From positions 1-25,201 of IMG/VR virus record IMGVR_UViG_3300042731_001967: a stretch of 25,201 nt of DNA. One strand, written 5' to 3'. Under the pieces are notes generated by a model. It was not told the origin of the DNA and did not search any database. It was given only the letters and a program-made list of their open reading frames with translations. Below, in pieces: positions 1-12,314 of this stretch. How positions within the stretch are numbered: position 1 is the stretch's first letter; each line of letters begins with the position of its first letter. This stretch comes from a virus. Made by a program: the position numbers and the translations under genes.

Positions 1-854
1 ATTATTTTCCATTCTATGCAAAGGATGGGAGAACATTATACCTGCTTGAAAGTAAGTATCAATGCAAGGGAACCGGGTTTTTTACGAATGTTATGCGGTT
101 TCTTACGCTGGAAACCGATCATTACTGTAATTTATCCGAGGAAATGGATAAAGCTTATTTTTTTGCCAAATGCCATTGTGATGAAGAAAGTGGCATGGAT
201 ATGCTTAATATAATGGCCAAAACAGGTAAAATAAACAGTGAGTTATGGGAAAGAGCCATCATCGTTTCACAAGATTTATTGAACAGTTTAACAGATGCTT
301 ATCGAAACCGAAAAAATAGCATAATAACCATACCCGAAATCATTAAAAAAGAGGTTTCTTGCGTAAGAAATGATGTTTCTGACGTAAGAAACACAATAAA
401 CAGCGTTGAAAACCCGCAAAGGAAAGGAAAGGAAACTAAAGGAAAGGAAACTAAAGGAAAGGATATATATATATCGTCCCCGAAAGATTCGGGAACGGAT
501 GTTTGCCCTCATCAAAAAATAATAGATAAATATCATGAAATACTTCCTTCTCTGCCAATGGTAAAAAAATGGCCAGATCATCTTCAAAAAATATTAAGAA
601 CCAGGTGGAAAGAGGATTCCGAAAGGCAGTCAATCGAATGGTGGGCTAAATTTTTTGAATACGTAAAAATTAGTCCGTTTCTGATGGGAAAGAAGTCTGA
701 TTTTTTGGCTGACCTTGAGTGGTTAATCAGGCCGAGAAATTTCACCAAAATAGCAAACGGAAGGTATCACCAATATATTAAAAACAATGTGAGCAGTAAG
801 ACTGAACGCACTATTAATAATCTAACTGAATGGATGGAAGAAAATGAACAATAA
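1..854 (+). CDS. Phage replication initiator-like protein (DUF4373-like N-terminus), 5' partial
   Basis: The frame is open from base 3 to the TAA at 852-854 with no stop to the left edge, so the gene begins outside the window and 283 codons are visible. The N-terminal part (YFPFYAKDG..., then LSEEMDKAYFFAKCHCDEESG) resembles the Lin1244/Lin1753-like DUF4373 winged-helix domain of phage replisome organisers. A lysine-rich linker with repeated GKETK follows at bases 420-462. The C-terminal part carries a pattern common at the end of phage O-like replication proteins: W-x2-FF-x3-K-x-SPFL-x-G, then L-x-WL and NF-x-KI-x3-Y. By family it would bind the phage origin and recruit the helicase loader encoded next. 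Dyad repeats lie inside the gene. Family assignment is from pattern memory, not a search; the internal ATG at 93 is not the true start. Confidence 0.8.
   Translation, partial: YFPFYAKDGRTLYLLESKYQCKGTGFFTNVMRFLTLETDHYCNLSEEMDKAYFFAKCHCDEESGMDMLNIMAKTGKINSELWERAIIVSQDLLNSLTDAYRNRKNSIITIPEIIKKEVSCVRNDVSDVRNTINSVENPQRKGKETKGKETKGKDIYISSPKDSGTDVCPHQKIIDKYHEILPSLPMVKKWPDHLQKILRTRWKEDSERQSIEWWAKFFEYVKISPFLMGKKSDFLADLEWLIRPRNFTKIANGRYHQYIKNNVSSKTERTINNLTEWMEENEQ
97..116. repeat. Dyad repeat, outlying copy of the putative iteron
   Basis: GGTTTC at 97-102 is the exact inverse of GAAACC at 111-116. The core at 99-114 is 16 bases, TTTCTTACGCTGGAAA, and shares TTTCTT, a central CG and a terminal GAAA with the two copies at 355-391. 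It lies in the coding sequence of the replication gene. Whether it is a functional binding site is inference. Confidence 0.4.
355..391. repeat. Two dyad-symmetric 16-base repeats, candidate initiator-binding iterons
   Basis: TTTCTTGCGTAAGAAA (355-370) and TTTCTGACGTAAGAAA (376-391) differ at two positions and start exactly 21 bases apart, which is two helical turns, so they would face the same side of the duplex. Each is an imperfect inverted repeat (TTTCTT/AAGAAA in the first; GTTTCT 375-380 with AGAAAC 387-392 in the second). They sit in the part of the replication gene that encodes the linker between its two domains, just before a purine-rich repeat. Sequence facts are direct; the origin role is inference by analogy with lambda. 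Confidence 0.5.
426..474. repeat. Purine-rich 15-base direct repeat followed by (AT)6, candidate DNA unwinding element
   Basis: The unit GGAAAGGAAACTAAA occurs at 426-440 and 441-455 and begins a third time at 456, running into an uninterrupted AT dinucleotide tract at 463-474. The plus strand is almost purely purine from 418 to 463. In frame it encodes the repeated GKETK linker. It lies immediately 3' of the dyads, the same order as iterons and the AT-rich asymmetric tract in lambda ori. As a tandem repeat it could also vary in copy number without breaking the frame. Confidence 0.5.
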
Positions 855-1302
855 AAAAATATTTGCTGAATACATGACTGTACTCGGAGAAATTCACGGA
901 AAGGAAATTTCTAAAACTTTGGCTGAATCGTATTTTGAAATTTTAAAGCCTTATTCAGACAATGAATGCATAACAGCCTTTAAACTCGTTATAAAAAATT
1001 CCAAGTTTTTCCCTAAGCCAGCTGAGATTCTTGAATTATTAGAGTCAAAAAACAAGCTTTCATCTTCTGAAGCATGGGGAAAAGTTATTGATTGTTTAAC
1101 ATATGGTAGGCAATCGGAGAATCCCACAATTTCAAAAGCTATTTCTGCACTTGGCGGCTGGGATTATTTATCGAAACTTTCTTACGATGATTTACACTGG
1201 CAGGAAAAAAGATTTAAAGAATATTTTAATGATTTTCAGAATAAAAATGATTTTGATCAAGATTTGATCGAATTTAAAGACAATATTTTATTGATTGATT
1301 AA
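844..1302 (+). CDS. Putative phage replicative helicase loader
   Basis: 152 residues; the ATG overlaps the end of the replication gene by 11 bases, implying translational coupling. The sequence fits small helicase loader/inhibitor proteins of the G39P type: an N-terminal helical segment with Y-F at residues 30-31, then a short FFPKPAEILEL block around residues 55-65, then AW-x2-V and a LGGWDYL motif before KRFKEYF near the C-terminus. Such proteins bring the replicative helicase to the initiator-bound origin. Position directly after an initiator supports the role. No ATPase (DnaC-like) Walker motif is visible, so this is not a DnaC/lambda-type AAA+ loader. Assignment is from motif and context only. 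Confidence 0.65.
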   Translation: MNNKKIFAEYMTVLGEIHGKEISKTLAESYFEILKPYSDNECITAFKLVIKNSKFFPKPAEILELLESKNKLSSSEAWGKVIDCLTYGRQSENPTISKAISALGGWDYLSKLSYDDLHWQEKRFKEYFNDFQNKNDFDQDLIEFKDNILLID

Positions 1303-12145: not shown

Positions 12146-12221
12146 AAGCCTCTTTGGATCTAATAAGATCAAATATGATCAAATGTGATCATGATCTTAA
12201 ACGATCCGAAGGGGCTTTTTT
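12146..12221 (+). terminator. Long GATC-rich hairpin terminator ahead of the scaffold gene
   Basis: AAGCCTCTTTGGATC (12146-12160) pairs with GATCCGAAGGGGCTT (12203-12217) over 15 positions with two G-U pairs, followed directly by a six-T run (12216-12221). Inside, TAAGATCA (12164-12171) pairs exactly with TGATCTTA (12192-12199), extending the stem with a small internal bulge, and TGATCA palindromes sit at the tip. This is a strong rho-independent terminator shape. It separates the unknown-gene cassette from the scaffold and capsid genes, so the latter probably have their own transcript start or depend on read-through. Confidence 0.8.
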
Positions 12222-12267: not shown

Positions 12268-12314
12268 AGCATAAAAAAATCGAAGACCGTAAAGTCGGCT
12301 CGATGGAGGACAAA

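What the first reader, a model, noticed from the sequence alone, without database searches (positions are those of the whole stretch)
97..474. Candidate lambda-like replication origin inside the initiator gene
Inside the replication-initiator gene lie two 16-base dyad repeats (355-370 and 376-391, starts exactly 21 bases apart) that differ at only two positions. They are followed by an almost pure-purine tract with a 15-base direct repeat and then (AT)6 at 463-474. A third related dyad is at 97-116. In lambda, iterons with dyad symmetry sit in the middle of gene O, between its two domains, followed by an AT-rich, purine-asymmetric unwinding region; here the order and the location in the inter-domain linker are the same. 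Known: lambda architecture. Seen: repeats, tract and spacing. Inferred: that this protein binds them. Coding constraint for a lysine-rich linker is the main rival explanation for the purine repeat, but it does not explain the dyads.
Basis: partly seen in the sequence, partly recalled or inferred. Interest (0 to 1): 0.6.

Follow-up and report, generated by a model that had tools for sequence, protein, structure and literature searches.

The report
Phage replication origin inside initiator gene
The phage most likely starts copying its DNA from a site written inside the gene for its own replication-starting protein, where docking repeats lead into a stretch repeating every five bases; hundreds of phages share this layout, and the five-base stretch is kept by selection on the DNA, not on the protein.

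Summary
Gene 3-854 (cut off by the record's 5' end) has a Lin1244_N (PF14297) N-domain and an O-like C-domain.

In 17 homologues picked by protein alone, period 5 exceeds a synonymous-codon null (combined P about 2e-22; periods 6-8 do not), and so do iteron pairs (3e-8). Purine richness alone is explained by lysine codons. Iterons sit at fixed steps from the tract and resemble each other within a gene. The fifth pentamer base is usually T, but never where that would make an in-frame stop. The layout persists across ten unrelated C-domains, and a period-5 tract recurs in the experimentally established Tuc2009 origin, in an unrelated initiator family.

The dyad at 97-116 and the (AT)6 are not supported as parts. 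Intragenic iteron origins are known (lambda, P22, SPP1, Tuc2009). I found no description of the period-5 tract in the open papers searched. No binding or replication was tested.

The parts
3..854 (+). Replication initiator gene, 5' end missing (record begins inside it)
   Evidence: Lin1244_N 2.2e-05; phrog_5810 1.7e-26, phrog_345 O-like 7.8e-16
3..353 (+). N-domain (Lin1244_N), putative winged-helix iteron-binding domain
   Evidence: AlphaFold2 pLDDT 88.6; no significant PDB match, top hits mostly winged-helix regulators; DNA binding inferred
354..371 (+). Iteron 1, GTTTCTTGCGTAAGAAAT
   Evidence: position -64 of the family ladder
375..392 (+). Iteron 2, GTTTCTGACGTAAGAAAC
   Evidence: position -43
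396..413 (+). Degenerate tract-proximal iteron 3, ATAAACAGCGTTGAAAAC, right arm conserved in the family
   Evidence: position -22, the commonest place in 135 genes; alignment of 17 homologues
418..462 (+). Nine in-register pentamers AxAxx (AAAGG/AAACT); - strand reads TnnT every 5 nt; proposed unwinding and strand-capture tract
   Evidence: 40-bp window at 430 is in the 95th percentile of predicted duplex instability in the window
463..474 (+). (AT)6, present here but not conserved in relatives; probably only extends the melting region
489..854 (+). C-domain (O-like / helicase-loader contact), exchanged among close relatives
   Evidence: ten C-domain clusters against one N-domain cluster in 17 homologues
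844..1302 (+). Next gene, DUF6475/phrog_10105, weak match to a helicase-loader family; candidate P-like loader
   Evidence: phrog_2289 helicase loader only E 0.063

Best explanation
This is the phage's replication origin, embedded in the initiator gene between the domains of its product. The winged-helix-like N-domain (inferred) binds three 18-bp iterons spaced 21 bp (two helical turns, one face of the DNA). The nucleoprotein complex strains and opens the adjacent tract, and one strand of the opened tract is captured in a 5-nt register (AxAxx on the + strand, TnnT on the - strand), by the initiator oligomer or by a DnaD-like or loader protein: the phage counterpart of ssDUE recruitment at DnaA-trios and at plasmid DUE repeats. 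The C-domain then brings the helicase loader and DnaB. Shown: sequence anatomy, DNA-level constraint, fixed register, and conservation while C-domains change. Inferred: binding, opening, strand capture, helicase loading. The origin itself I put at about 0.86; the 5-nt strand-capture step alone at about 0.5.
For: Synonymous nulls on 17 protein-selected homologues: period 5 P 1.8e-22, iteron pairs 3e-8, same tests in the N-domain not significant. Pentamer A1 98.5% and A3 97.8% vs 84% and 72% under the null, 7-8 sd. Fifth base T in 314 of 346 cases at codon positions 2/3 and 0 of 122 at position 1, where it would make TAA. DNA pattern for the tract -> 120 loci, 117 with a sense ORF of at least 150 aa, tract median 448 nt from the ORF start, 112/119 Lin1244_N, 115/119 phrog_2562 'replication initiation protein'. 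Iterons at fixed places, 90 perfect-anchor sites vs 15.1+-3.5; within-gene core identity 7.3/12 vs 5.1+-0.2. In five 45-58 kb relatives the initiator tract is the strongest period-5 place of the genome (5/5); in the four whose iteron I searched, 0-2-mismatch copies lie only in the initiator gene. One N-domain cluster with ten C-domain clusters. Tuc2009 rep, whose intragenic repeats are an established origin (PMC8965321), carries the same layout.
Against: No binding, melting or replication data for this family. GC skew is uninformative: positive throughout the window, and only one of five relatives (L008) switches sign at the initiator. Column covariation between N-domain and iterons is confounded by clade. 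Iteron 3 is degenerate, and iteron pairs are significant on their own in only about half of the homologues, though positions are shared.
Confidence: 0.86

Rival explanations
1. Coding only: the repeats follow from a lysine-rich flexible linker and a heptad-like VSxVRN repeat; the DNA pattern is a by-product of the protein.
For: Purine richness is fully explained by codons (P 0.40-0.67). The two window iterons encode a 7-residue repeat (VSCVRND VSDVRNT).
Against: Period 5 and iterons exceed synonymous nulls. Peptides differ completely between homologues (KGKET, SKVKK, RKEKK, TLHYT, REEKS) while the AxAxx pentamers stay. 33-bp (11-residue) iteron spacing is also common, so no heptad is kept. T is avoided only where it makes a stop.
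Confidence: 0.04
2. The dyads are operators for a phage repressor or an autoregulatory site of the initiator, not an origin.
For: Dyads look like repressor operators; initiators can autoregulate.
Against: Good copies lie in mid-gene only, with none elsewhere in the window within 3 mismatches, and 0-2-mismatch copies only in the initiator gene in four relatives. They are in fixed register with the tract.
Confidence: 0.06
3. It is an origin, but the tract is only a generic easily melted, purine-biased DUE; the 5-bp register has no reader and is a relic of repeat expansion by slippage.
For: Tandem repeats grow by slippage; lambda-family tracts are A-rich with only weak period 5; predicted instability is in the 91st-95th percentile.
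Against: A1 and A3 stay near 98% while positions 2, 4 and 5 change (AAAGG, ACACT, AGAGT, AAAGC), in register across substitutions, anchored at one distance from the last iteron. Slippage alone would not preserve single positions over such divergence. G-containing pentamers are not the easiest melting choice.
Confidence: 0.35
4. The region is a recombination hot-spot for domain exchange (a linker that permits module swapping) rather than an origin.
For: C-domains are exchanged exactly downstream of the tract.
Against: Does not explain dyad iterons, helical phasing, concerted iteron evolution or the stop-avoiding pentamers; Tuc2009's equivalent region is an origin (PMC8965321). It may be a secondary effect.
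Confidence: 0.04

Closest known systems
Phage lambda ori in gene O (also P22 gene 18)
   Same: Origin inside the initiator gene, between DNA-binding and loader-contact domains; dyad iterons followed by a purine-asymmetric A-rich tract; loader or helicase gene downstream; the lambda-family tract CACAAAAGAAACTATTACAAAAG is conserved while iterons differ; [quoted passage not shown]
   Different: Lambda has Phage_rep_O (PF04492) as N-domain, four iterons, and no significant strict period 5 (P 0.26). Here: Lin1244_N, three iterons at a 21-bp step, strict AxAxx pentamers.
Lactococcal phage Tuc2009 rep (orf16) origin
   Same: Established origin of direct repeats inside the gene, bound by its product (PMC8965321; record note 'contains origin of replication'); period-5 tract directly after iterons, strongest of the genome, beyond synonymous null (P 0.002); same stop-avoiding pattern.
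   Different: Different N-domain and Rep_Org_C C-domain; pentamer AGGTT/GGATA instead of AAAGG; different iterons.
SPP1 oriL in gene 38
   Same: Direct repeats plus AT-rich DUE inside the initiator gene (PMC6316719).
   Different: Known from the paper only; the SPP1 record was not available, so sequences were not compared.
DnaA-trios and DnaD recognition element of oriC; RctB and TrfA DUE repeats
   Same: Short tandem repeats in the DUE read on one strand by the initiator (PMC10316083); DnaD needs two 5'-TnnT-3' motifs (PMC10201434), which the - strand here offers every 5 nt.
   Different: Register of 3 (DnaA) or units of 4 (ATCA, GGTT) rather than 5; DnaA, RctB and TrfA are unrelated initiators; binding not shown here.

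Membership tests
Lin1244_N initiators (PF14297) | N-terminal domain match | tested here: met
   E 2.2e-05, 25.5 bits vs cut-off 25; homologues much stronger
Lambda O family (Phage_rep_O, PF04492) | PF04492 N-domain | tested here: not met
   Not among Pfam matches up to E 1; lambda O itself matches at 5.7e-36
Lambda O family (Phage_rep_O, PF04492) | O-like C-domain | tested here: met
   phrog_345 'replication initiation O-like' 7.8e-16, residues 137-256
Intragenic iteron origin (functional class: lambda, P22, SPP1, Tuc2009) | Multiple directly repeated dyad sites within the initiator gene | tested here: met
Intragenic iteron origin (functional class: lambda, P22, SPP1, Tuc2009) | Adjacent unwinding tract | tested here: met
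   Sequence and predicted stability only; melting not measured
Intragenic iteron origin (functional class: lambda, P22, SPP1, Tuc2009) | Initiator binds the iterons | not testable with these tools
   Predicted winged-helix-like N-domain is compatible only
Intragenic iteron origin (functional class: lambda, P22, SPP1, Tuc2009) | Autonomous replication from the site | not testable with these tools
   Needs a replication assay
Intragenic iteron origin (functional class: lambda, P22, SPP1, Tuc2009) | GC-skew switch at the site | tested here: inconclusive
   Window starts inside the gene and skew is positive throughout; 1 of 5 relatives switches there
DnaD recognition element (TnnT) | At least two 5'-TnnT-3' on one strand of the unwinding region | tested here: met
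   Implied on the - strand by A3-N-N-A1 of successive pentamers; definition from PMC10201434
DnaD recognition element (TnnT) | Bound by a DnaD protein | not testable with these tools
   The window's C-domain gives no DnaB_2 (DnaD-like) Pfam match; 35 of 119 relatives have one

The most novel reading that the evidence does not exclude
Phage initiators read a single-stranded code with a 5-nt register (AxAxx/TnnT, or AGGTT in a second family) when opening their intragenic origins. It is analogous to the 3-nt DnaA-trio, shared by unrelated initiator families, and strong enough to impose pentapeptide repeats on the proteins that contain it.
Probability: 0.4. Interest if true: 0.8.

Novelty: new variant of a known kind. 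Interest (0 to 1): 0.6.

Why it matters
How initiators open origins and hold one strand is still called an open question (PMC5043065). Here a simple sequence rule (18-bp iterons at whole-turn steps, then in-register pentamers) predicts origins in phages of unknown hosts from sequence alone, assigns a function to the puzzling KGKER/SKVKE-type linkers of phage initiators, and offers a register that can be mutated base by base while leaving the protein unchanged. The frequent exchange of C-domains with the origin left in place suggests a movable unit of N-domain, iterons and tract.

Tried and rejected
Third dyad at 97-116: rejected as a part. (AT)6: not conserved. Purine bias as evidence: rejected, coding explains it. 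Heptad/coiled-coil origin of the 21-bp spacing: rejected, 33-bp spacing is also common. GC skew: inconclusive. Mutual information between N-domain columns and iteron arms: spread over the domain and driven by clade, no claim made. C-domain scan of viral contigs found no relatives. Profile search of PDB sequences with the N-domain: no hit. The generic pattern GTTTCN8GAAAC with 2 mismatches is too loose to be useful genome-wide. Strict period 5 as a universal rule: rejected; lambda relatives are only loosely periodic and phi297 shows period 6. The SPP1 record and the r1t and TP901-1 papers were not available. Rfam and tRNA scans of the window: nothing.

Full report
WHAT THE WINDOW IS. The window is a 25,201-base virus record that begins inside a replication initiator gene (3-854). 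Downstream come a DUF6475/phrog_10105 gene, RusA, terminase, portal and capsid genes. The N-domain is Lin1244_N (PF14297, E 2.2e-05); the C-domain matches phrog_5810 (1.7e-26) and phrog_345 'replication initiation O-like' (7.8e-16). The only genome-assembly relatives found are metagenome-assembled Desulfobacterales/Deltaproteobacteria and Treponema/Spirochaetaceae contigs, so the host is probably of that kind (inference).

THE OBSERVATION. The two dyads are exactly as described: three places within three mismatches of TTTCTTACGTAAGAAA in 25 kb, 0.15 expected. When the same protein is recoded synonymously, the combined dyad and match score of the two sites is never reached in 5,000 draws under either null. 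Purine richness is reached readily (P 0.40-0.67). The five-base periodicity of the tract is not (P<0.0002 with window codon usage; 0.003 with within-gene permutation).

HOMOLOGUES CHOSEN BY PROTEIN. Searches gave 16 further distinct genes sharing the N-domain (47-79% identity to the window). Scanning statistics over the linker, against synonymous nulls, give Fisher P 1.8e-22 for period 5. Period 4 is marginal (0.025); periods 6-8 are not significant; period 5 is not significant in the N-domain control. For the best iteron pair the value is 3e-8, with the control at 0.49. The genes are related, so these combined values overstate independence. Anchored on the Q (or H/E) codon that starts the tract, the first eight pentamers of 17 genes have A at position 1 in 98.5% and at position 3 in 97.8%, against 84+-2% and 72+-3% under the null. 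The encoded peptides differ completely (KGKET, SKVKK, RKEKK, REEKS, TLHYT). After the tract the proteins fall into ten C-domain clusters against one N-domain cluster, so the unit that stays together is N-domain + iterons + tract.

PATTERN-CHOSEN LOCI. 119 lie in a sense ORF longer than the antisense one, 117 of those ORFs have at least 150 aa, 113 are in one reading frame, and the median distance from the ORF start is 448 nt. Of 119 ORFs, 112 match Lin1244_N, 35 match DnaB_2, and 115 match phrog_2562 'replication initiation protein'. The fifth pentamer base was free in the pattern: T in 106/117 at codon position 2 and 208/229 at position 3, but 0/122 at position 1, where T followed by AA would be a stop. 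So the DNA consensus is AAAGT and the protein merely accommodates it. Pentamers 6 and 7, outside the pattern, keep A1 and A3 at 97-100%.

ITERONS. In 135 genes, 18-mers GTTN12AAC with perfect anchors occur 90 times in the 160 nt before the tract, against 15.1+-3.5 after codon shuffling. They sit at preferred positions counted from the first pentamer: -22, -43, -64, -85 or -22, -55, -76/-88, i.e. steps of 21 and 33 bp, close to whole helical turns. Their inner 12 bases agree within a gene (7.32 of 12) more than across genes (5.08+-0.20 shuffled), and the two inner arms are complementary more than re-paired arms (3.06 vs 2.25+-0.08 of 6). Phages therefore differ in iteron sequence but each is internally consistent, as expected of cognate initiator sites. 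In the window the ladder is 354-371, 375-392 and a degenerate 396-413; the pentamers start at 418.

WHOLE GENOMES. In five relatives of 45-58 kb the strongest period-5 place of the whole sequence is this tract. For four of them I searched the phage's own iteron: 0-2-mismatch copies occur only in the initiator gene. GC skew is not decisive; only L008 switches sign there.

BEYOND THE FAMILY. Tuc2009, whose intragenic repeats are bound by Rep2009 and serve as origin (PMC8965321), has iterons followed by GGATA/GGTTA pentamers: the strongest period-5 place of its genome and significant against synonymous recoding (P 0.002). A second scan for that pentamer found 78 loci with the tract in the interior of a sense ORF (42 after removing similar ones); 36 of those 42 match phrog_5708/8489 'DnaD-like helicase loader'. 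The remaining hits are mostly simple repeats. TP901-1 and A118, two further phages with initiators of other families, show no significant period 5. Lambda O relatives with different iterons keep a common tract CACAAAAGAAACTATTACAAAAG, but strict period 5 is weak there (P 0.01-0.44), and phi297 shows a period-6 repeat after its iterons. The period is thus a feature of at least two initiator families, not of all.

MECHANISM. Lambda O binds iterons as an O-some; two iterons plus the AT-rich tract form the minimal unwinding unit; O, P and DnaB contact the opened strand (PMC7466680, PMC5043065). DnaA-trios, the ATCA repeats of V. cholerae ori2 and the GGTT repeats of RK2 show that tandem short repeats in a DUE can be the single-stranded binding register of the initiator (PMC10316083). 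DnaD needs two TnnT motifs (PMC10201434), which the - strand of AxAxx pentamers supplies every 5 nt. I therefore propose iteron-anchored opening of 418-475 with capture of one strand in a 5-nt register. Structure prediction gives a confident, mostly helical N-domain (pLDDT 88.6) whose best but non-significant PDB matches are mostly winged-helix regulators.

LIMITS. Nothing here was tested at the bench. The collections are metagenome-heavy. Literature was limited to open papers, so a description of the pentamers in subscription papers (for instance on phage r1t or in reviews of phage replication modules) cannot be excluded.

Noticed in passing
L276 (Pseudomonas phage phi297), replication gene 481-1503: After dyad-like repeats (ACCTGTGAC...GTCACG) comes GACAGGGACAGGGACAGGGACAGGG, a period-6 repeat: another register in a GC-rich phage with a C-domain related to the window's.
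   Followed up: no
L266-L271, L273, L275 (lambda O homologues): A tract like CACAAAAGAAACTATTACAAAAGAAAAAAG after the iterons is strongly conserved across enterobacterial, Mannheimia and Pseudoalteromonas phages whose iterons differ.
   Followed up: partly
L146-L265 (pattern hits): A second initiator family (Tuc2009-like, MAQRRMFSKxITxSDxFLDMP) carries AGGTT AGGTT AGGTA pentamers with the same avoidance of in-frame stops (TAG).
   Followed up: partly
A2 members (119 initiators): One member with a Lin1244-type tract scores for DnaA_N (5.6e-11), and 26 match phrog_6251 'replisome organizer DnaA-like': C-domains appear to be borrowed from several helicase-recruiting proteins.
   Followed up: no
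L014 4887-6149: An insertion with a helix-turn-helix-like segment (SVREVADILECNPETIKNHIRELW) separates the N-domain from iterons and tract, yet both stay in register.
   Followed up: no
L008 contig G002 46370 and 47667: Iteron-like sites (3-4 mismatches) inside the N-domain coding part and about 1 kb upstream of the initiator; GC skew changes sign at 47 kb.
   Followed up: no
window 12157-12191: Tandem repeat (GATCAAATAT)x3.5 directly before the gene at 12303; function unknown.
   Followed up: no
L115 388-414: The one clear non-initiator hit of the first scan is a CAAAC-type repeat at the start of an unrelated ORF.
   Followed up: no
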